Shown here in pieces: positions 10,286-20,208 of a stretch of 64,000 nt of DNA (its first letter is position 1; the number at the start of each line of letters is the position of its first letter). Position numbers and translations under genes: made by a program. The stretch comes from a virus. The notes under the pieces were generated by a model. The model worked only from the letters and a program-made list of their open reading frames with translations, did no database searches and was not told the DNA's origin. Location: the IMG/VR virus record IMGVR_UViG_3300009488_000018, positions 60,328 through 124,327 of that record, one strand, 5' to 3'.

Positions 10286-10410
10286 ATTATAAAGGATAGG
10301 AGAGAATAAACAAGAAAAAGACTACTATTAAGAGACAGCATGTTCGCTCAAAGAAAACATGAAATGATCGATAAAATATTAACATTGTTAGATTTTAGGA
10401 GGTAATAAAA

Positions 10411-10611
10411 TTGACAAAGGTATTGATAATCGAGAGCGAAGCTGGTTGGGGGCGAAAAGTTGAAAAAGAAAAAGAGTTCGATAGTCGGGAAGAAGCCATA
10501 CAGTATTGTAAGGATTATAACAACGAATATAATCCGGCTGACAAACCTACCCCAGTATGGTATATGTATGCTCGATTGGAAGATCAGGTTGAATATGGAA
10601 TGTTGCGTTAA
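10411..10611 (+). CDS. small hypothetical protein (TTG start)
   Basis: 66 residues. TTG is chosen because AGGAGG stands nine bases upstream and the product MTKVLIIESEAGWGRKVEKE has a coherent hydrophobic start. Charged, alpha/beta. The 200 bases after it hold no convincing gene, only a weak 43-codon frame. Confidence 0.55.
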   Translation: MTKVLIIESEAGWGRKVEKEKEFDSREEAIQYCKDYNNEYNPADKPTPVWYMYARLEDQVEYGMLR

Positions 10612-10812
10612 AAATCTAACCAACATATCGAGCAGGCCAGCTAACGCTAGCAGCTCATGTAAGACTGTTAGAGAAGTCAAAAAACTCACAAATAGCAAGA
10701 TCTTTAAGGAAGAGGTCTGGAACTGAACTAGTTAAGATTTATCGTAGAGAAAAGGCTAAGAGAGGAATAACATCAAGTTTAAATAGAATATCAACCAAAA
10801 CAAGGGAAATAA

Positions 10813-11427
10813 ATGAATCCATTTGGAAAGATCATAGAAAAAAAAGATGGTACCCTGGATGCTATAATGACTCGCCAACTTACACAAAATGAATTGGAAG
10901 GGACAACAGTAGTAAATTTGAGACATATGTGTATTCGCTACTATAACATTCCAGGTATGACCCATAAAAGAAAAAATGTGATTATCGATGCTATCCTTAA
11001 AAAATATAAGACATTAGATAAAATAAAATATCAACTATTTATTTCTGAAAAACAAGCTAGAGTAATCACATCTGCTCTTGACTTGTTTTCTAGGATAGGA
11101 ATTGGTCAACTCGAAGAAATTTTGAGACATCCACAATATGCAAATGTAATTTTCAACAACAATGCCACTTACAAAGTTTGCAAAGAATTATTAGATGAAA
11201 CAAAAAAGCTTCTTACGAATTTTCCTCCTAATGCATCTTATGGCATAGGAAATCCTGAAGTACATAGCGATTGTACTATATCTTACGATCTTATGCAAGT
11301 TATTAGACATAGACTTGCATGGGATAATAATCCTGAAGGAGGATTACAAGTCAGCTTTGGTAAACCAATGCGCTTTTCTAATGAAGAAGAATTAGCAAAG
11401 ATCAAACAGAAGACAACTAAATTTTAG
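10813..11427 (+). CDS. SAP-like domain protein
   Basis: 204 residues; ATG behind AAGGGAAATAA. Residues ~38-67 (LRHMCIRYYNIPG, THKRKNVIIDAILKKY) fit a SAP-type DNA-binding helix-extended-loop-helix. A helical middle (ISEKQARVITSALDLFSRIG) precedes a C-terminal region with DCTISYDLMQVIRHRLAWD. I infer a DNA-associated phage protein; the C-terminal function is unknown. The TAG stop shares its last base with tRNA-Arg. Confidence 0.65.
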   Translation: MNPFGKIIEKKDGTLDAIMTRQLTQNELEGTTVVNLRHMCIRYYNIPGMTHKRKNVIIDAILKKYKTLDKIKYQLFISEKQARVITSALDLFSRIGIGQLEEILRHPQYANVIFNNNATYKVCKELLDETKKLLTNFPPNASYGIGNPEVHSDCTISYDLMQVIRHRLAWDNNPEGGLQVSFGKPMRFSNEEELAKIKQKTTKF

Positions 11428-12703: not shown

Positions 12704-13051
12704 ATGAGACCAGGCGATAGAAAACAAAGATGGCAGAGTACATGTACCATTGAGGGAATAATATTATTCCTGATTGGGTTGTTTTTTGCCTACTCTGGAT
12801 TGATGGCTCCAAGAAACGGTTGGATCGTTTTATTAATAGCCTTGGGTGCATTATGGGGGTCAATGAAATCTTTTACTGATGCAAAACGCGGATGGAAGAT
12901 GACGGATAAGCGCCCGCCTTGGGCTGATAGGCATGACGCTATAGACAGGGGCGATTTAACATTATATAAAAGATACCCTCATTGGCGACCTAATATACAA
13001 TCTAACAAAGTACTCAACTCCAAACCAACTAAAGCTGGCGGGGTTAATTAA
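12704..13051 (+). CDS. cassette protein 1: membrane protein
   Basis: 115 residues; ATG behind AAGGAGGTAGA. Two hydrophobic segments (residues 18-36 and 43-60) precede a basic soluble tail. The gene ends inside the attC-like site at 13000, as integron cassette genes commonly do. Its last residues (NSKPTKAGGVN) are encoded by that site. Confidence 0.7.
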   Translation: MRPGDRKQRWQSTCTIEGIILFLIGLFFAYSGLMAPRNGWIVLLIALGALWGSMKSFTDAKRGWKMTDKRPPWADRHDAIDRGDLTLYKRYPHWRPNIQSNKVLNSKPTKAGGVN

Positions 13052-13060
13052 TTGTTAAGG
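13000..13060 (+). other. attC-like recombination site 1
   Basis: Begins ATCTAAC (fits RYYYAAC) and ends GTTAAGG (GTTRRRY-like). Between them CTCAAC and GGGGTTAA give imperfect inverted complementarity around a CCAAC/GCTGG core. Layout and length (61 bases) match integron attC sites; a gene ends within it and the next starts nine bases later. Confidence 0.75.
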
Positions 13061-13068
13061 AGAGTCTT

Positions 13069-13398
13069 ATGATTACACCATCAGAGAGAATTCAGGCAGT
13101 TAAAGAATGGAACGAGTCAGGGTTTCATGAGTTAACGTGTGGAATTGATTCCAACCATCCTCCACTCGTAGCGGCAGAAACTCCATTTGGCGTGTATCTC
13201 TTCTGTACAGCGAATAAATGTGGATATACTCAGCCATTTTGGAAAGTCCCAGCTGTGGTATGGTTATCGTTTTTTGAGCGACACGCCTCCCCACAAGTCA
13301 CTCAAGATGAAGTAGACTCACCATGGTTTTGTATTGAATGTAAACATGATGGCAATACAGGCCCAAAGTGTGACAATTGCCTTATGCCACGCCGATGA
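13069..13398 (+). CDS. cassette protein 2: zinc-ribbon protein
   Basis: 109 residues; the ribosome site AAGGAG lies in the end of attC-like site 1. Cys pairs CTANKC and CIEC...CDNC suggest two zinc sites, the last of RanBP2-like or ribbon type (FCIECKHDGNTGPKCDNC). No attC-like site follows directly, so it may share a cassette with the next two ORFs. Confidence 0.65.
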   Translation: MITPSERIQAVKEWNESGFHELTCGIDSNHPPLVAAETPFGVYLFCTANKCGYTQPFWKVPAVVWLSFFERHASPQVTQDEVDSPWFCIECKHDGNTGPKCDNCLMPRR

Positions 13399-13419
13399 TC
13401 TTAATTTGGGAGGCTGACA

Positions 13420-13668
13420 ATGAAAAAAGCTATATGCAATCGTGTAGATCTTAAACATAAGAAATGCCAAATAACTTCATGTTATCATTATAGCATACAT
13501 GAATCAATAGGATGTGAAAAATGGCACGAATGTCATTACTACAAAGTGCCAGTTAGATGCTTTTATGTCTCCAGAAGAATATGGAGTGAAGAGAGAAGAC
13601 TAGAGCAGCTTAGTTCAAATATTAGGACGAATTCTAAAGGAGACATTTATGAGTTTATATTATGCTGA
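13420..13668 (+). CDS. Cys/His-rich small protein
   Basis: 82 residues; ATG behind GGGAGGCTGACA. CNRVDLKHKKC, CYHYSIHESIGC and HECHYY give many possible metal ligands. Overlaps the next ORF by 20 bases. Not recognised. Confidence 0.55.
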   Translation: MKKAICNRVDLKHKKCQITSCYHYSIHESIGCEKWHECHYYKVPVRCFYVSRRIWSEERRLEQLSSNIRTNSKGDIYEFILC

Positions 13669-13852
13669 AACAGGTCTTGGTTGTTGTATTAGAGAAGCAA
13701 CCAGTTTAAAAAATGCAAGAAATATAATTCTTAGAGAGGTTGGTACATATAATGGTCCCAAAATTGTTCGTAAGGCCAGTAAAGATGATATAAATTGGGT
13801 TAATAGTATGGGTGGATATGTACCAAAAATTCACCCCCAACCAAGTACTTAA
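13649..13852 (+). CDS. small hypothetical cassette protein
   Basis: 67 residues; AAAGGAGACATTT precedes the ATG. A GCCIREATSLKNARNIILRE helix and a short C-terminal beta part are visible. TAA lies inside attC-like site 2, so the last codons come from the site. Function unknown. Confidence 0.6.
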   Translation: MSLYYAETGLGCCIREATSLKNARNIILREVGTYNGPKIVRKASKDDINWVNSMGGYVPKIHPQPST

Positions 13853-13890
13853 CTCCAAACCAGCCAAAGCTGATTAGTTTTTCGTTATGT
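13835..13890 (+). other. attC-like recombination site 2
   Basis: Left half is nearly identical to site 1 (AAGTACT-AACTCCAAACCA). Ends GTTATGT, the usual right-end core; the left core CCCCAAC has one mismatch to RYYYAAC. 56 bases. Confidence 0.75.
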
Positions 13891-13905
13891 TTCAAGGAGG
13901 ATAAA

Positions 13906-14052
13906 ATGAATGAACAACTTTATGAGCAAGCATCAGAGGCTATAGAAAAATTGTTCTCTGATAAATCTGTATCACAAGAACAGGCAAGGGAAAATTTGGA
14001 ATCACTCATTGGTGAAATCGAAATAATGCTTGAAAGTATGGAGGAAACCTAA
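13906..14052 (+). CDS. 48-residue acidic helical cassette protein
   Basis: ATG behind AAGGAGGATAAA. Entirely helical and acidic (MNEQLYEQASEAIEKLF start, ending ESMEET). The TAA lies in the left core of attC-like site 3. Small acidic helical proteins of this kind occur in cassette arrays, mostly without known function. Confidence 0.6.
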   Translation: MNEQLYEQASEAIEKLFSDKSVSQEQARENLESLIGEIEIMLESMEET

Positions 14053-14154
14053 CAACGCGCTCAACTCACTGTTAGGATTCAAACCAAATAACAATAACGC
14101 AGTATCTTAAGTGTAGACAATCCAGTAGTTGTGAGGGTTAGCTCCACGTTAGAT
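14047..14154 (+). other. attC-like recombination site 3 (long)
   Basis: ACCTAAC at the left and GTTAGAT at the right both fit the core consensus exactly. GCTCAACTCAC on the left is partly complementary to GTGAGGGTTAGC on the right, and GGATT/AATCC pair further in. 108 bases, within the usual attC size range. Confidence 0.75.
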
Positions 14155-14173
14155 TGCTCTTTAAGGAGTTATT

Positions 14174-14374
14174 ATGAGTTGTAAAGAAGGATATAGGGGC
14201 GAATGTTGCTGTGAGTGTGAACATCAACTTAAAATCCATGTTTGCACTTGTGGAATCTGCCCCACCATAGAAGGATATATCTGTATTTTATCCCATGTCA
14301 TAGATCATAACTATCATTGTACCTATAAGACGAATAAGCATGGTGCGTGTGAGTGTTTTATGTTGAGAAAGTAA
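14174..14374 (+). CDS. cysteine-rich cassette protein
   Basis: 66 residues with 13 cysteines, several in CCCECEH, CTCGICP and CECF clusters. ATG behind TTTAAGGAGTTATT. A metal-binding protein is likely; no family recognised. The stop codon ends where attC-like site 4 starts. Confidence 0.65.
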   Translation: MSCKEGYRGECCCECEHQLKIHVCTCGICPTIEGYICILSHVIDHNYHCTYKTNKHGACECFMLRK

Positions 14375-14431
14375 TCGAACAAAACACTCAACCCAGACCC
14401 ATAAATATCAAGCTGATGAGTTTTGTTATAC
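14374..14431 (+). other. attC-like recombination site 4
   Basis: AACAAAACACTCAACC at the left is complementary in blocks to GAGTTTTGTTATAC at the right; right core GTTATAC, left core ATCGAAC with one mismatch. 58 bases. Confidence 0.75.
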
Positions 14432-14449
14432 AGAAAGGAGGAAAGAGAT

Positions 14450-14692
14450 ATGAGTTACTTTTGGTTTTCATTTTCTAAGAATGGGAAAAATCAGGGATGT
14501 ATTAATGTTGAAGCTGATACATCAGAAATAGCAATGAAAAATGCGATAGAATTAAATATCGTACCAAAACATGACGATGTCGAAACATACAAAATCGATG
14601 AACCAGAGATACCCATTAATGTTTTAGTGTCTCCAGAAGAAATGAAGCAGATGGAGTATGATTCAGTAAAATATAAAAAAAACTCAACCTAA
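14450..14692 (+). CDS. small hypothetical cassette protein
   Basis: 80 residues; the ATG after AAAGGAGGAAAGAGAT is preferred over an upstream ATG inside the attC-like site. Starts MSYFWFSFSKNGKNQGCINV; alpha/beta, acidic C-terminus with PEEMKQMEYD. TAA lies within site 5. Function unknown. Confidence 0.65.
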   Translation: MSYFWFSFSKNGKNQGCINVEADTSEIAMKNAIELNIVPKHDDVETYKIDEPEIPINVLVSPEEMKQMEYDSVKYKKNST

Positions 14693-14718
14693 ACCCATAA
14701 ATATCAATTTTGTTATGC
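14670..14718 (+). other. attC-like recombination site 5 (degenerate)
   Basis: Shares CTCAACC and ACCCATAAATATCA with site 4 and ends TTTTGTTATGC, but its left core has decayed and the part equivalent to GCTGATGAG is deleted. It reads as a worn relative of site 4. Confidence 0.6.
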
Positions 14719-14809
14719 CGCTATGTATGGTGCAAGATCATACTCATCGGGGGCAGTAAACCTACGGGCTGCTGGCTGTCTATGGTGCCTGAGATGGAAC
14801 CAGCTAGCG
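14719..14809 (+). other. gene-less cassette segment
   Basis: The stretch between the right core of site 5 and the left core of site 6 has no credible plus-strand ORF. A minus-strand open frame exists but lacks a ribosome site. A promoter or RNA cassette is possible; nothing decisive is seen. Confidence 0.4.
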
Positions 14810-14944
14810 GCATAACAAATCGCTGAAGTCGGAATCGGGAATGCTATGGAGTAAGTGAAGAACCCGAGTGCACTTGGGTTGCAGGTGACCGAGCCTGACG
14901 TTCCCGAATTTTCCTTAGCCCAACTGATTAGTTTAATGTTATAC
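14810..14944 (+). other. attC-like recombination site 6 (long)
   Basis: Left core GCATAAC, right core GTTATAC. TCGGGAATG and CGTTCCCGA form a clear internal stem, and the right arm AACTGATTAGTTTAAT resembles site 2. 135 bases, near the upper end of attC lengths. Confidence 0.65.
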
Positions 14945-14957
14945 AAAAGGAGGAAAG

Positions 14958-15344
14958 ATGAAGAAATGGCCAGAGGATGGTTCTACGGTACAGTTTGCAG
15001 AAATAGTTGAGTCCGTCAGAAAGGCAATACTCTTTGCATATAATATTAAAAGGAAAAACAGGAATAGAAGCATACCTTGGGATGGACTTGATATTGGAAA
15101 TGATTCAAAAGCGACTTGCTTTTCTCCAGAGGAACAACTTCAACTAGAACATTTGCGTTATTCTGAAAATGATCAAGGACGGGATGCTCTAGATGAAATA
15201 CTAAGTATAGCTGTCCGATTAGGGATTGAACAAGGACAGAGGATTTTTAAAAAAGGTACAGAATATCAAATGATGAAAATACGGTTGAACTTAATAGAAA
15301 ATCTAACAAATCACTCAGTCCAACCGAACAGACCAACTGGTTAG
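14958..15344 (+). CDS. hypothetical cassette protein
   Basis: 128 residues; ATG behind AAAAGGAGGAAAG right after site 6. Helical, with a Lys/Arg-rich segment (NIKRKNRNRS) and an acidic middle. The last codons (PNRPTG, TAG) are encoded by attC-like site 7. Not recognised. Confidence 0.65.
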   Translation: MKKWPEDGSTVQFAEIVESVRKAILFAYNIKRKNRNRSIPWDGLDIGNDSKATCFSPEEQLQLEHLRYSENDQGRDALDEILSIAVRLGIEQGQRIFKKGTEYQMMKIRLNLIENLTNHSVQPNRPTG

Positions 15345-15358
15345 TTTAACCGTTAACA
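15301..15358 (+). other. attC-like recombination site 7
   Basis: Left core ATCTAAC fits exactly; AACAAATCACTCAG matches the left arms of other sites; right arm GGTTAGTTTAACCGTTAACA. 58 bases. The upstream gene ends inside it. Confidence 0.7.
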
Positions 15359-15379
15359 ATCCTTCTTCAGGAGATTAAT

Positions 15380-15547
15380 ATGCAAATATGTAAATTTTGT
15401 CAAAAGTCCTATGATGTAAAAGAAACCAAAAGGGTTTTCGGTGATATGTGGTGGATATACATTTATTGCTCTGCACAATGTTATACAAAAGATCAGGTTG
15501 TTAACAAAACACCTAACTCAGACCATGCTAACCGTCCGTCCGGATGA
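15380..15547 (+). CDS. 55-residue zinc-binding cassette protein
   Basis: ATG behind CAGGAGATTAAT. CKFC at residues 4-7 and CSAQC near 31 form a probable zinc ribbon with aromatic residues between (DMWWIYIYC). Its last third is encoded by attC-like sequence. Confidence 0.6.
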   Translation: MQICKFCQKSYDVKETKRVFGDMWWIYIYCSAQCYTKDQVVNKTPNSDHANRPSG

Positions 15548-15564
15548 ACTCAGCTGCGTAAAAC
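15499..15564 (+). other. attC-like site 8, left part
   Basis: TGTTAACAAAACACCTAACTC matches left arms of sites 4 and 7, but no right core follows before the 27-base inverted repeat begins. The right part appears to resume at 16209. Confidence 0.5.
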
Positions 15565-16208
15565 TCTATATAAAATGTAAGTGAAACTGCGGGCCAGGCT
15601 TTAAAAGAAAGGAGATAAAGGCCATGCGAATAATTAAATCCAAAAGATTAATGTTACTACTCATTAGTTTCGCTTCGATCTTTGCTCTTGTAACGACCTC
15701 TCTTGCACAGGAGAAGATTAAGCTCGCGGGGAAGCGATACGGGGTCAGAACTAAAGCGGAAGTGATTAAGCTTGATGACACCAAGGGGCACATCCTTATC
15801 CTCTCGGAGTCAAAGGGCACCGATGCCACTACTGGTGCCCAGTTTGTTAGCACTGCATTCGGTGATTATATTAAGGGAAATGGACCACATTGGGGCTACG
15901 GAAAAGCTATAGACCCAGATGGCGATGTCACTTTTAGTACATTTAAATCAAAGTTTACCACCACCCTTTCCCCCGAAGGCAAACCGATCACTACATTTGA
16001 AGGGACTTGGTCTTTCACAAAAGGAACTGGTAAGTATGAGAACGCCCAGGGGGGCGGCACCTTCAAGGGAAAGGTTATAGGACCAGGAATATTCACATAT
16101 GATTGGGAAGGCGAATACTCTATTAAGAAGTAAGAGACAGCCTTCTCTTACAACCCCTAGTATTACAATCTTTTGCTAGTTCGCAGTTTCACTTACATTT
16201 TATATAGA
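15565..16208. mobile_element. 644-base element with 27-base perfect inverted ends
   Basis: TCTATATAAAATGTAAGTG... at 15565-15591 is repeated perfectly in inverse orientation at 16182-16208. Between them is one exported-protein gene, richer in G+C than its surroundings. No transposase. It resembles a MITE-like or other non-autonomous mobile unit and appears to split an attC-like site. Confidence 0.65.
15624..16133 (+). CDS. exported beta-rich protein
   Basis: 169 residues; ATG behind AAAGGAGATAAAGGCC. Signal peptide (KRLMLLLISFASIFALVTT, cleavage likely after LAQ). The mature part is beta-rich with FEGTWSFTKGTGKYENAQGG, as in small periplasmic or secreted barrel proteins of bacteria. Codon choice is less AT-rich than neighbouring genes, so it was probably acquired from a bacterium. 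Flanked by perfect 27-base inverted repeats. Confidence 0.75.
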   Translation: MRIIKSKRLMLLLISFASIFALVTTSLAQEKIKLAGKRYGVRTKAEVIKLDDTKGHILILSESKGTDATTGAQFVSTAFGDYIKGNGPHWGYGKAIDPDGDVTFSTFKSKFTTTLSPEGKPITTFEGTWSFTKGTGKYENAQGGGTFKGKVIGPGIFTYDWEGEYSIKK

Positions 16209-16235
16209 ACATAACTAATTAGTTTTTCATTGGGC
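16209..16235 (+). other. attC-like site 8, right part
   Basis: ACTAATTAGTTTTTCATTGGGC resembles the right arm of site 2 (GATTAGTTTTTCGTTATGT); ATTGGGC is one base from a GTTRRRY core. Directly follows the inverted-repeat element. Confidence 0.45.
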
Positions 16236-16258
16236 GGTTTCGTCCAGAAAGGAAAATC

Positions 16259-16432
16259 ATGAGCGAGAAATTAACTGATGAACAAATTAAGAACTGGCGC
16301 GAAGTTCTTGTCGGAATGATTGGACCATACGCTCTAATAATGCCAAGGGAAGAAATCCAGGCATTTCGTGACAAAACGCAAAATGCCGTCCAACAAGTCG
16401 CTCAACCAAATCTGGATAAACCGGCAGCTTAA
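16259..16432 (+). CDS. 57-residue cassette protein
   Basis: ATG behind AGAAAGGAAAATC. Starts MSEKLTDEQIKNWREVLVGM, helical, with a Pro/Ala-rich end (PNLDKPAA) encoded by attC-like site 9. Resembles small soluble proteins common as unknown cargo; function unknown. Confidence 0.6.
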   Translation: MSEKLTDEQIKNWREVLVGMIGPYALIMPREEIQAFRDKTQNAVQQVAQPNLDKPAA

Positions 16433-16446
16433 TTCTGTCGTTAGAC
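16388..16446 (+). other. attC-like recombination site 9
   Basis: GTCCAAC and GTTAGAC both match the core consensus. GCTCAACC / GGCAGCTTAATTC and a CCAAATCTGG core complete the imperfect hairpin. 59 bases; with sites 1, 3 and 7 the best example. Confidence 0.78.
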
Positions 16447-16699: not shown

Positions 16700-17683
16700 A
16701 TGAAGACCGTAACTTCACAAGCTGAATTTGAAGAGAAGCTAAAAGAAGGTTTGAGATCTTTTAAATTTAAGGGTTTCAGTGGTGTATTGAAGGGAGATAC
16801 TCATATTCATCTTTATGGTAATTCTCAAGCCTATCTACTGGGAAACTCTCACACTACATTACATCAAAGCGCTTTTGCTGCATTATGGGGAAACTGTCAT
16901 GCTAGGCTTCATGACAGTTCTCATGCCGTGTTACGAGGTAACTCTTCTGCTGAGCTACATGGAACCCCTTATTCTTCCCCCCATGTTTCACTTCAGGACA
17001 ATTCTTATGTCATACTACGCGGACATTCTCATGCTGATTTATGGGGGCATTCTTTTGCTGAGATACGGGAAAGTTCTCATGCTATACTACGGGGATATTC
17101 CCAAGCTATATTATGGGGACATTCTCATGCTGATTTACGTGATGATTCTTTTGCTGAGCTATGGGGAAGTTCTTCCGTTATCTTACAAGGGAGATCTCGT
17201 GCTATGCTACGGGATTTCTCGATAGGTTATCTAAGGAGCAAGAGAGCAAAGGCTAAAGCTGGAAAACGTGCAACCATAATTGAAATGATCTACCCTGAAG
17301 ATATCAAACAATGGGCAGCACTGAAAAGGGTGTGTATTAGACGAAACAGAATAATGCTTTGGAAAGCTGTGAGACAAAATGGTACTGACTTCTATACTGG
17401 TCAAGTTAATTATGATACTAAGAAAGAAATTACCGCACCAGACTGGGATTCGAAATATTCTCAAGAATGTGGTTTTGGTTTGCACCTTGCCGATTCTCCT
17501 AGTGCTGCACGACTATTTTGTTCAAGAGATCAGCGTAAAACTGCCCGGTTATTCCGAGTGTCAGTTAATATAAATGATTGTATCTGCTTTCCAGGCATGC
17601 CACATTATCCAATGAAATTACGAGCACGAGCATGTCGGAAAGTGAAAGAATATCCAATTAGTTATAACCTTTGGGAGGAGTAA
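16700..17683 (+). CDS. beta-helix-like repeat protein with C-terminal conserved domain
   Basis: 327 residues; ATG behind CAGGAGGTAAAA. Residues ~30-195 are some twenty imperfect eight-residue repeats of the form SHAxLxGx (SHADLWGH, SHAVLRGN, SFAELWGS), which should stack as a beta-helix; the DNA is repetitive too. Residues ~205-320 hold CGFGLHLADSPSAARLF and ARLFRVSVNI, resembling a phage-associated domain also hinted at in the protein at 19387. Function unknown; binding or decoy roles are guesses. Confidence 0.7.
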   Translation: MKTVTSQAEFEEKLKEGLRSFKFKGFSGVLKGDTHIHLYGNSQAYLLGNSHTTLHQSAFAALWGNCHARLHDSSHAVLRGNSSAELHGTPYSSPHVSLQDNSYVILRGHSHADLWGHSFAEIRESSHAILRGYSQAILWGHSHADLRDDSFAELWGSSSVILQGRSRAMLRDFSIGYLRSKRAKAKAGKRATIIEMIYPEDIKQWAALKRVCIRRNRIMLWKAVRQNGTDFYTGQVNYDTKKEITAPDWDSKYSQECGFGLHLADSPSAARLFCSRDQRKTARLFRVSVNINDCICFPGMPHYPMKLRARACRKVKEYPISYNLWEE

Positions 17684-17721
17684 TATTAGACTAAATACTT
17701 CAGAGAGGAGGTGAATAAGGA

Positions 17722-17799
17722 GTGTGGGGAGCCACAGCAATTATAGTAGGTTTCGTTATACTTTGGATTATAGCTATCAAGCTTATAACGAATAGGTAG
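17722..17799 (+). CDS. 25-residue membrane peptide
   Basis: GTG start with AGAGGAGGTGAATAAGGA upstream; the peptide is one hydrophobic helix (ATAIIVGFVILWIIAIK). Ends at TAG. The strong ribosome site supports translation, but the size keeps confidence low. Confidence 0.45.
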   Translation: MWGATAIIVGFVILWIIAIKLITNR

Positions 17800-18297: not shown

Positions 18298-18324
18298 TTT
18301 GTTAATTTGGCCACTTAAAACTAA

Positions 18325-18399
18325 GCGCCTGTAGCTCAGTGGACATAGAGCACAAGATTTCTACTCTTGGTGTCGTGGGTTCGAATCCCTCCAGGCGTT
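18325..18399 (+). tRNA. tRNA-Arg (TCT)
   Basis: Acceptor GCGCCTG/CAGGCGT as in tRNA-Arg(ACG), anticodon loop TTTCTAC (TCT), T loop TTCGAAT. Confidence 0.92.
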
Positions 18400-18402
18400 T
18401 AA

Positions 18403-18477
18403 GCGTTCGTAGCTCAGCCCGGTAGAGCGGGAGGGTGAAGTCCTCCGTCGTCAGAGGTTCAAATCCTTTCGAGCGCA
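18403..18477 (+). tRNA. tRNA-Phe (GAA)
   Basis: Acceptor GCGTTCG/CGAGCGC, anticodon loop GTGAAGT (GAA), T loop TTCAAAT, discriminator A. Confidence 0.92.
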
Positions 18478-18485
18478 CTTTTCAT

Positions 18486-18558
18486 GCGTCCGTAACTCAG
18501 TTGGTAGAGTACAGGACTTTTAATCCTGGAGTCGCAGGTTCAATCCCTGCCGGACGTA
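18486..18558 (+). tRNA. tRNA-Lys (TTT)
   Basis: Acceptor GCGTCCG/CGGACGT, anticodon loop CTTTTAA (TTT), T loop TTCAATC, discriminator A. Confidence 0.92.
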
Positions 18559-18569
18559 TTAACAACAGT

Positions 18570-18614
18570 TTCTAACAAACATTTATAGAACAAATAAATG
18601 TATAAATGTTAGAT
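18570..18614 (+). repeat. attC-like inverted repeat
   Basis: TTCTAACAAACATTTATA is complementary, with a small bulge, to TATAAATGTTAGAT. The right end GTTAGAT fits an attC core and the left TTCTAAC is one base off. Only 45 bases, so an ordinary hairpin is possible. Confidence 0.4.
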
Positions 18615-18792: not shown

Positions 18793-19098
18793 ATGCATCC
18801 ATTAACAGAAATCAAAAACCAACAAAAAGAAAGAGGGTTTACAATACGTAAACTCAAAAAAGAAAGAAAAGGAATCAAAACCGAAGACGAATTTTCCAAT
18901 ACATTATGGAGCTTATACAAACTTCGGATCGAGTTCAGACATACTCATATTGCTTATTGTGAAGTAAGAGGAAAAACTAGAGAACAGATTGAAATACCCA
19001 GAGAAGATAATCAACCCAATGAAGACAAAATTAGTAAGGTTAAAGAGGAAATTATTGGGAGGATTAGAGAACATGAAACTCTACGTAATAGTTCGTAA
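18793..19098 (+). CDS. hypothetical basic protein under leader control
   Basis: 101 residues; AAGGAGGACTTGTC precedes the ATG and lies in the hairpin described above. Basic N-terminal half (KERGFTIRKLKKERKG) and helical C-terminus. Overlaps the PTH2-like gene by 26 bases, so the two are probably coupled. Not recognised; no GGQ motif, so not an obvious release factor. Confidence 0.65.
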   Translation: MHPLTEIKNQQKERGFTIRKLKKERKGIKTEDEFSNTLWSLYKLRIEFRHTHIAYCEVRGKTREQIEIPREDNQPNEDKISKVKEEIIGRIREHETLRNSS

Positions 19099-19366
19099 AG
19101 ATCTTACTTCATCGCAACAAGCAGTTCAAGCTGGACATGCACTTGCAGAATATTTACTTAGAAGATCATGGAGTTCTGATTGGAATAACGGAACTTTAGT
19201 TTATCTCGGAGCAAAAAATAAACTCGAACTAGAGAAACTAATGTACAAGCTTGAAATGAGAAATATAAAGTGGGTTAGTTTTATTGAACCAGACTTAAAC
19301 AATGAAGTTACTGCTATAGCAACAGAATATGATGGTAGTTTAATATCTGGACTAGACTTGTTGTAA
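19073..19366 (+). CDS. peptidyl-tRNA hydrolase 2-like protein
   Basis: 97 residues from the ATG after GGGAGGATTAGAGAAC. KLYVIVRKDLTSSQQAVQAG followed by HALAEYL matches the start of PTH2-type hydrolases (VVRxDL...AAQxxHA), with EL and NE segments later as in that fold; size is near the family's ~115. PTH2 releases tRNA from stalled peptidyl-tRNA, which would fit a phage with many tRNAs. The usual length is slightly longer, so activity is not certain. Confidence 0.7.
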   Translation: MKLYVIVRKDLTSSQQAVQAGHALAEYLLRRSWSSDWNNGTLVYLGAKNKLELEKLMYKLEMRNIKWVSFIEPDLNNEVTAIATEYDGSLISGLDLL

Positions 19367-19386
19367 ATAGTGAAATGGAGGATATT

Positions 19387-20118
19387 ATGTGTCTCGACTG
19401 TATCGACTGTAATATAGAACCCCATGATGAAGGTTTCAAAATTCTGCAGAGACTAACGTCAGGAATATTTACACCGATCTATTTCCCTAAAACGCAATAT
19501 ACATTTAGAAAATGGTTTAATGCCAAAACCTTCGATAAAGATAATGAAATCAAAATAGTTAAAACTTCAGATGGAAAACCTTATCCAGCTGGATTTCATT
19601 ATTATCTAAATCTTGAAGACGCTATATCACATGCTGCAAGAAACAGAATAGTTGCTCGAATTAAAATTAAGAATATTCTTGTAACTGGTCTTCAAGACGA
19701 GAAACAAGCCGGAGTTTCAGAATATATAATGTTAATGAAAATAGTTAAAGATACTATACCAGTTGAGAAGTATAGAATTAATCCACAAATAAATGATATC
19801 ATAACTGAATCTCTGAAACCCTTACTAAATATACTAAGACATAGTCACGGAAAAGTTAGTGACAAAACAGTACAAAAAATAGGAGAGTTAGTTTCAGAAA
19901 CAGATGAAAACTTCGTTGATTATGTCACAATTGTAGACAATCTAAGAAGACAAGGAGAAGCATTTAAAACTGCCACTACAATACACTATAGAGCTTTAAA
20001 GTTAGTACCGAGATATTTAGACTATCATACTAGAATAATGTCATCAGACTCATCTCTTCTAGACAAATTATCTTCTCGTAAAAATGAGCTTTTCGACCAG
20101 GGGTATCGAGACTTGTAA
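19387..20118 (+). CDS. hypothetical protein with phage-associated N-terminal domain
   Basis: 243 residues from the ATG preceded by GGAGGATATT; a start four codons upstream would bury that site. CLDCIDC at the N-terminus may bind metal. GKPYPAGFHYYLNLEDAISHA and RIVARIKIKNILVTG resemble the C-terminal domain of the repeat protein at 16700 (CGFGLHLADSPSAA, ARLFRVSVNI). The rest is helical. Function unknown. Confidence 0.6.
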   Translation: MCLDCIDCNIEPHDEGFKILQRLTSGIFTPIYFPKTQYTFRKWFNAKTFDKDNEIKIVKTSDGKPYPAGFHYYLNLEDAISHAARNRIVARIKIKNILVTGLQDEKQAGVSEYIMLMKIVKDTIPVEKYRINPQINDIITESLKPLLNILRHSHGKVSDKTVQKIGELVSETDENFVDYVTIVDNLRRQGEAFKTATTIHYRALKLVPRYLDYHTRIMSSDSSLLDKLSSRKNELFDQGYRDL

Positions 20119-20133
20119 CTATACTTTACAAAT

Positions 20134-20208
20134 TCCCCTGTAGCTTAGTCAGGTCAAAAGCAGAGGTCTCTAAAACCTTGGACGTGGGTTCAAATCCCAC
20201 CAGGGGAT
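20134..20208 (+). tRNA. tRNA with anticodon CTA (amber suppressor)
   Basis: Full cloverleaf: acceptor TCCCCTG/CAGGGGA, D stem GCTT/AAGC, anticodon arm GAGGT-CTCTAAA-ACCTT with T33 and anticodon CTA at 20170-20172, T arm GTGGG-TTCAAAT-CCCAC. CTA reads UAG. T1-A72 is shared with the tRNA-Gln here, but discriminator is T, so the amino acid is not certain. Confidence 0.9.

What the first reader, a model, noticed from the sequence alone, without database searches (positions are those of the whole stretch)
12704..16446. Integron-like gene-cassette array inside a phage-like, tRNA-rich genome
Seen: 8-10 small plus-strand genes without promoters, separated by 50-135 base imperfect palindromes that start with RYYYAAC-type cores (ATCTAAC, ACCTAAC, GTCCAAC) and end with GTTRRRY-type cores (GTTAGAT, GTTAGAC, GTTATAC). 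Genes end inside these sites and the next gene starts shortly after, as in integrons. Arms share AACAAA-N-ACTCAAC, typical of attC. The block sits exactly between two tRNA clusters. No integrase gene is in the window. Known: attC folding is recognised by IntI. Inference: cassettes were captured by, or are carried on, a phage genome.
Basis: partly seen in the sequence, partly recalled or inferred. Interest (0 to 1): 0.95.

Follow-up and report, generated by a model that had tools for sequence, protein, structure and literature searches.

The report
Integron cassette array in large phage
A large T4-like bacteriophage carries a row of small genes separated by genuine integron recombination sites but no integron integrase, so it most likely picked these genes up, and could pass them on, by borrowing the enzyme of a bacterial host; shorter examples in other phages are already published.

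Summary
Window 13000-16446 carries nine attC-type sites, S1-S9: seven clear, one degenerate (S5), one split by an inserted gene (S8). They lie on one strand, downstream of small plus-strand ORFs. A covariance model and a profile trained only on known attC sites rank S9, S6, S3 and S1 at or above background from 1.2-2.7 Mb of relatives' DNA. In leave-one-out tests each of the seven clear sites beats the background maximum. The end box of each cassette is complementary to the box at its own start (24 of 32 variable positions against 12.5 expected, exact p about 1e-4), as integrase-made cassettes should show. The host record is a 124-kb IMG/VR contig of a T4-like myovirus; the array sits inside its tRNA island, and related phages tested lack such arrays. 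No integron integrase was found in this phage or 22 relatives. It is therefore a CALIN (integrase-less attC cluster), probably filled by a host IntI acting in trans. CALINs in virulent phages are already published and partly assayed (Qi et al. 2023, PMC9892861), so this is a new member of a known kind. Less usual: the tRNA-island setting, a possible solo cassette at 10387-10673, and an inverted-repeat-bounded gene inside one attC. The donor is unidentified.

The parts
12704..13051 (+). 115-aa membrane-type ORF ending inside S1; 48% identical homolog in phage contig L211, which has no attC
13000..13060 (+). attC site S1 (ATCTAAC...GTTAAGG)
   Evidence: PWM 23.9 vs background maximum 23.5; CM 15.4 bits; leave-one-out 31.6 vs 23.3
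13069..13852 (+). three ORFs (13069-13398, 13420-13668, 13649-13852) with no attC between them; the first has partial homologs in phage contigs L020, L212, L213
13835..13890 (+). attC site S2 (CCCCAAC...GTTATGT), weak
   Evidence: leave-one-out 25.7 vs 24.0; 34-nt repeat 88% identical to S1
13906..14052 (+). 48-aa ORF, weak match to phrog_35790 (E 2.5e-5)
14047..14154 (+). attC site S3 (ACCTAAC...GTTAGAT)
   Evidence: PWM 29.0; CM 17.1 bits
14174..14374 (+). 66-aa Cys-rich ORF
14374..14431 (+). attC site S4 (ATCGAAC...GTTATAC)
   Evidence: PWM 20.8; leave-one-out 30.3 vs 23.9
14450..14692 (+). 80-aa ORF ending inside S5
14671..14718 (+). attC site S5, degenerate start box ATATAAA, end box GTTATGC; 31-nt repeat 90% identical to S4
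14719..14809 (+). ORF-less body of the cassette that ends in S6
14810..14944 (+). attC site S6 (GCATAAC...GTTATAC), 135 bp
   Evidence: PWM 28.7; CM 19.5 bits
14958..15344 (+). 128-aa ORF ending inside S7
15301..15358 (+). attC site S7 (ATCTAAC...GTTAACA)
   Evidence: leave-one-out 27.0 vs 23.5; CM filters-off 12.8 bits
15380..15547 (+). 55-aa Cys-containing ORF ending inside the 5' arm of S8
15499..16235 (+). attC site S8 (TGTTAAC...ATTGGGC) split by an insert at 15565-16208
   Evidence: 5' arm repeat 86% like S4, 3' arm repeat 82% like S2; start box 7/7 complementary to the S7 end box
15565..16208 (.). insert inside S8: perfect 27-bp inverted repeats (15565-15591, 16182-16208) around a secreted-type 169-aa gene (15624-16133)
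   Evidence: plasmid tblastn hit 27.6%
16259..16432 (+). 57-aa ORF of the last full cassette
16388..16446 (+). attC site S9 (GTCCAAC...GTTAGAC), best-scoring site
   Evidence: PWM 41.7; CM 28.7 bits, E 4e-4
10387..10673 (+). possible solo cassette: GTTAGAT 10387-10393, RBS, 66-aa ORF 10411-10611, attC-like hairpin S0 10614-10673 (ATCTAAC...GTTAGAG)
   Evidence: start box 7/7 complementary; 0.28 exact hits per genome expected in relatives; CM only 11.4 bits
12496..12651 (+). flanking tRNA-Val, tRNA-Ile (context)
18324..18559 (+). flanking tRNA-Arg, -Phe, -Lys (context)

Best explanation
This is a cluster of attC sites lacking an integrase (CALIN) in the tRNA island of a large T4-like, probably virulent phage. 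Shown: the sites have attC architecture and orientation, and successive boxes carry the complementarity that cassettes acquire when they exist as circles and are joined at G|TTRRRY. Inferred: an integron integrase encoded by a present or past host folded the bottom strands and recombined the cassettes. They either went singly into the phage DNA, attC by attC or at secondary sites, or a ready-made stretch of host array was copied in by phage recombination. The phage carries the cassettes as small accessory genes expressed by phage transcription and could hand them to a new host integron.
For: Independent CM and PWM hits. Leave-one-out family signal. End box n-1 against start box n: 24 of 32, exact p 1e-4, against 15 of 36 within sites; without the degenerate S5 start box p=4e-4. 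The same statistic is high in the control Vibrio phage array (24 of 28). ORFs run into the attC sites as in real cassettes. The array is flanked by phage tRNAs, and the phage-conserved block gene18793-PTH2-tRNA(CTA) lies 2.3 kb past its last site. Apart from one partial match of the 13069 ORF, no array gene has a homolog in 2.8 Mb of fetched DNA, most of it relatives. attC sites of other virulent phages are substrates of IntI1.
Against: No recombination assay and no second copy of the locus. The complementarity test loses power when S8 and S5 are removed (p=0.017, then 0.083). No matching box upstream of gene 12704, so that gene may be a native phage gene, and its homolog in L211 is a phage gene without attC. 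No donor integron or host identified. The record is incomplete (relatives reach 312 kb), so an integrase could lie in unsequenced parts.
Confidence: 0.8

Rival explanations
1. The palindromes are ordinary intrinsic terminators or phage intergenic hairpins that resemble attC by chance.
For: Most sites do not fold better than shuffles; the phage is AT-rich and has many intergenic spaces.
Against: No terminator-like feature at any site; independent attC models hit them but almost nothing else in more than 1 Mb; order-specific box complementarity.
Confidence: 0.04
2. A block of a host chromosomal integron array was copied into the phage by illegitimate or phage-driven recombination, with no integrase acting on phage DNA (a variant of the best explanation that differs in the last step).
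For: Several attC share sequence (S1/S2 88%, S4/S5 90% over 31-34 nt), as in sedentary arrays; T4-like phages recombine freely (established knowledge).
Against: A possible solo cassette 2 kb away points to more than one event; gene 12704 and the C-terminus of 13069 look phage-type.
Confidence: 0.35
3. The phage encodes its own integron integrase in the unsequenced part, making this a complete split integron.
For: Record is partial (124 kb; relatives reach 312 kb).
Against: No TIGR02249 match in 22 related records including several over 200 kb, and no PF00589 match in 11 records.
Confidence: 0.08
4. The contig is a chimera of phage and bacterial integron sequence.
For: Metagenomic assembly; the near-identical contig G001 does not cover the array.
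Against: Phage tRNAs and a phage-conserved gene block flank it; a single collinear contig with backbone genes on both sides.
Confidence: 0.05

Closest known systems
CALINs in virulent phages (Tetrasphaera phage TJE1, Polaribacter phage P12002L, Pseudoalteromonas phage PH101; Qi et al. 2023, PMC9892861)
   Same: Integrase-less clusters of attC with small cassette ORFs in a virulent-type phage; TJE1 sites score high with the same models (it was in the training set).
   Different: Here nine sites in a large T4-like phage inside a tRNA island, one site split by an inverted-repeat-bounded gene. TJE1 has 3 attC and 4 ORFs. No DNA methyltransferase cassette was found here.
Sedentary chromosomal integron of Vibrio captured in temperate phage Va_90-11-286_p16
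   Same: Same start box/end box logic and cross-complementarity.
   Different: That phage carries IntIA and near-uniform 126-bp attC sites; ours has no integrase and mostly 56-61-bp divergent sites.
Class 1 integron cassette arrays (aadA, cmlA1, blaVIM)
   Same: Short attC with the same 5'-arm spacing (AAC-N6-YTCAA) and L'-to-R' spacing of 6-7 nt.
   Different: No intI1, attI, Pc promoter or resistance genes.

Membership tests
attC site (integron cassette recombination site) | RYYYAAC start box and GTTRRRY end box with L boxes at fixed spacing | tested here: met
   S1, S3, S6, S9 by an independent PWM above all background; S4 and S7 weaker; S2, S5, S8 depart from consensus
attC site (integron cassette recombination site) | Match to a covariance model of known attC | tested here: met
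   S9 E 4e-4, S6 0.055, S3 0.2, S1 0.5 over 64 kb; in 1.15 Mb of other DNA only control integrons hit
attC site (integron cassette recombination site) | Bottom strand folds into an attC hairpin better than chance | tested here: inconclusive
   z -2.5 (S4), -1.4 (S1, S2), near 0 for the others
attC site (integron cassette recombination site) | Recombined by IntI | not testable with these tools
   needs an attC x attI assay
Integron gene cassette | Start box complementary to the cassette's own attC start box | tested here: met
   24 of 32, exact p 1e-4
Complete integron | intI gene with attI and Pc beside the array | tested here: not met
   no TIGR02249 or PF00589 match in the record
CALIN (at least two attC without integrase) | Cluster of two or more attC, same orientation, no intI nearby | tested here: met
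T4-like tailed phage | gp23 capsid, gp20 portal, PolB | tested here: met

The most novel reading that the evidence does not exclude
The tRNA island of this phage is a landing platform into which host integrases have repeatedly inserted single cassettes, seen at two separate places and partly carrying phage-type genes. The phage would then assemble and spread cassettes between host integrons without encoding any recombinase.
Probability: 0.25. Interest if true: 0.75.

Novelty: new member of a known kind. Interest (0 to 1): 0.5.

Why it matters
Integrons are the main capture system for bacterial accessory and resistance genes, and how cassettes cross between lineages is an open question. A multi-cassette array in a large, apparently virulent phage that lacks an integrase adds a concrete vehicle to the few published ones and offers sites for recombination assays. 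It also shows that phage-type small genes can sit next to attC sites.

Tried and rejected
Bottom-strand folding energy as a test: not discriminating. A simple box-plus-stem scanner: too many false hits. DNA pattern scans of 2.9 million viral contigs for this attC type gave 36 isolated chance-like hits and no array; the genome collection gave 58 hits, only one with several motifs (L159, Candidatus Endobugula sertula), not pursued. Flank proteins 10813-11424 and 19375-20115 found no relatives. Cassette protein 16259-16429 found nothing in 395 genomes of the phylum of a Smithella MAG, 399 of the phylum of an Ectothiorhodospiraceae MAG, or the phage collection. Pfam, PADLOC and NCBIfam gave no usable function for cassette ORFs. 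CM hit 10515-10613 lies inside an ORF and was set aside as chance. Possible attC sites at 17687-17761 (inside a small ORF) and 18570-18614 (AT-rich palindrome after tRNA-Lys) were not accepted.

Full report
The window is bases 60328-124327 of a 124,327-base IMG/VR virus record. The rest of the record was read. It encodes a gp23-type capsid protein, gp20-type portal, DnaB helicase, thymidylate synthase and a PolB fused to a uracil-DNA glycosylase, and 30 tRNAs. It is therefore a T4-like myovirus, far from isolated phages (capsid about 24% identical to the best-covering records). One IMG/VR contig (G001) is 99.99% identical over record positions 1-57863 and extends it by about 12 kb, but does not reach the array. 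Other capsid relatives are 66-77% identical, on contigs up to 312 kb.

The region 13000-16446 holds nine attC-type sites on the plus strand, each just after or overlapping the end of a small plus-strand ORF, except S6, which ends an ORF-less segment, and apart from the three-ORF stretch between S1 and S2. Known attC have a 5' arm RYYYAAC-N6-YTYAA and a 3' arm TTAA-N6/7-GTTRRRY. The best sites here keep this spacing, e.g. S9 GTCCAAC-AAGTCG-CTCAA ... CTTAA-TTCTGTC-GTTAGAC.

Two independent tests used only known sites for training. A profile from 28 known attC (class 1 plasmid arrays, Vibrio and Shewanella phages, Tetrasphaera phage TJE1) scored S9 41.7, S3 29.0, S6 28.7 and S1 23.9. The best score in 2.7 Mb of strand-bases of relatives' DNA was 23.5, and the known sites scored 13.5-44.7. 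A covariance model of 12 known attC gave S9 28.7 bits (E 4e-4), S6 19.5, S3 17.1 and S1 15.4 in the window. In 1.15 Mb of other DNA it hit only the two control records: 13 Vibrio sites never used in training of that model, 17-29 bits, and the TJE1 sites. A profile of the window's own seven clear sites, tested by leaving each out in turn, put every one above the maximum of the relatives' DNA.

The most telling test concerns how cassettes are made. Integron integrase cuts G|TTRRRY (established knowledge), so the end box that closes site n-1 and the start box of site n belonged to the same circular cassette and should be complementary. Over the eight successive pairs, 24 of 32 variable positions match against 12.5 expected over all orderings (exact p 1e-4); within sites only 15 of 36 match. 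Two pairs are perfect (GTTATGC/GCATAAC, GTTAACA/TGTTAAC). Caveat: the S5 start box was placed by alignment to S4, and S8 is split. Without the S5 start box p is 4e-4; also without S8 p is 0.017; also without the perfect S5-S6 pair p is 0.08. The same signature is seen in the Vibrio phage control.

No integron integrase (TIGR02249) occurs in the record or in 22 related records, and no tyrosine recombinase domain (PF00589) in 11 records tested. Relatives' DNA holds no attC cluster. The array is thus a CALIN specific to this phage among those examined. On the right, the phage-conserved block gene18793-PTH2-tRNA(CTA) lies 2.3 kb past the last site, which argues against a chimera.

Cassette content: small ORFs of 48-128 aa with no usable database function. 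Gene 12704, whose end lies in S1, has a 48% homolog in another phage contig without attC. Part of 13069 is found in phage contigs too, and 13906 weakly matches a phage family. No matching start box precedes gene 12704, so the left end of the array may be a phage gene next to which the first cassette was inserted. Site S8 is interrupted by 644 bp with perfect 27-bp inverted repeats around a gene for a secreted-type protein. Its two arms still resemble S4 and S2, so this looks like an insertion into an attC.

A second place, 10387-10673, has the layout of a solo cassette: GTTAGAT, ribosome-binding site, 66-aa ORF, and a hairpin starting with the exactly complementary ATCTAAC. Its CM score is weak (11.4 bits). 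It was found after the fact and is a lead only. The same scan gave three further exact hits elsewhere in the record with non-consensus boxes, not interpreted.

Mechanism. Shown: attC architecture, orientation, and order-specific box complementarity; absence of an integrase from the sequence held. Inferred: a host IntI acting in trans made the cassettes, and either inserted them into phage DNA or built a host array from which a stretch was copied into the phage. The data do not separate these two last steps well; the possible solo cassette and the phage-type genes at the left end lean towards insertion on phage DNA.

Literature: Qi et al. 2023 (PMC9892861) reported 17 CALINs in virulent, temperate and uncharacterised phages and showed that five of six attC sites tested from three virulent phages are recognised by IntI1. 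The finding is a new, well-supported member of that kind. The tRNA-island setting and the large-phage lineage are the new details I can document. I could not find the donor integron or host.

Noticed in passing
window 18793-20208; relatives L184-L210: A gene (101 aa), a PTH2-type peptidyl-tRNA hydrolase and a tRNA with anticodon CTA form a block. In all 14 relatives checked by ARAGORN the PTH2 hit is followed on the same strand by a CTA tRNA, usually within 1 kb (4 kb in one). ARAGORN calls it tRNA-Pyl; TAG still ends 31 of 141 ORFs of 100 aa or more in this record.
   Followed up: partly
window 15565-16208: Perfect 27-bp inverted repeats enclose a secreted-type 169-aa gene inside attC S8; no transposase, no clear target duplication, repeat not found in other fetched DNA.
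   Followed up: partly
window 16700-17683: 327-aa protein with many short degenerate repeats in its N-terminal half and a C-terminal domain shared with phage families (phrog_15773 1.7e-16) and mycobacteriophage hypothetical proteins.
   Followed up: partly
L190 11295-11680, L196 7554-7880, L197 8362-8757: ARAGORN reports tmRNA genes inside the tRNA islands of relatives; L190's tag ADDYYTDFAKAA looks real, the other two tags do not.
   Followed up: no
window 14709-14819: The ORF-less segment between S5 and S6 is bounded by a perfect 15-bp inverted repeat that extends beyond the 7-base cores.
   Followed up: no
L082, L083, L084, L088: Four viral contigs share a palindrome TTAACAAATCACTCAACATTAGGG...TTTGTTAAGAT that resembles a lone attC.
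   Followed up: no
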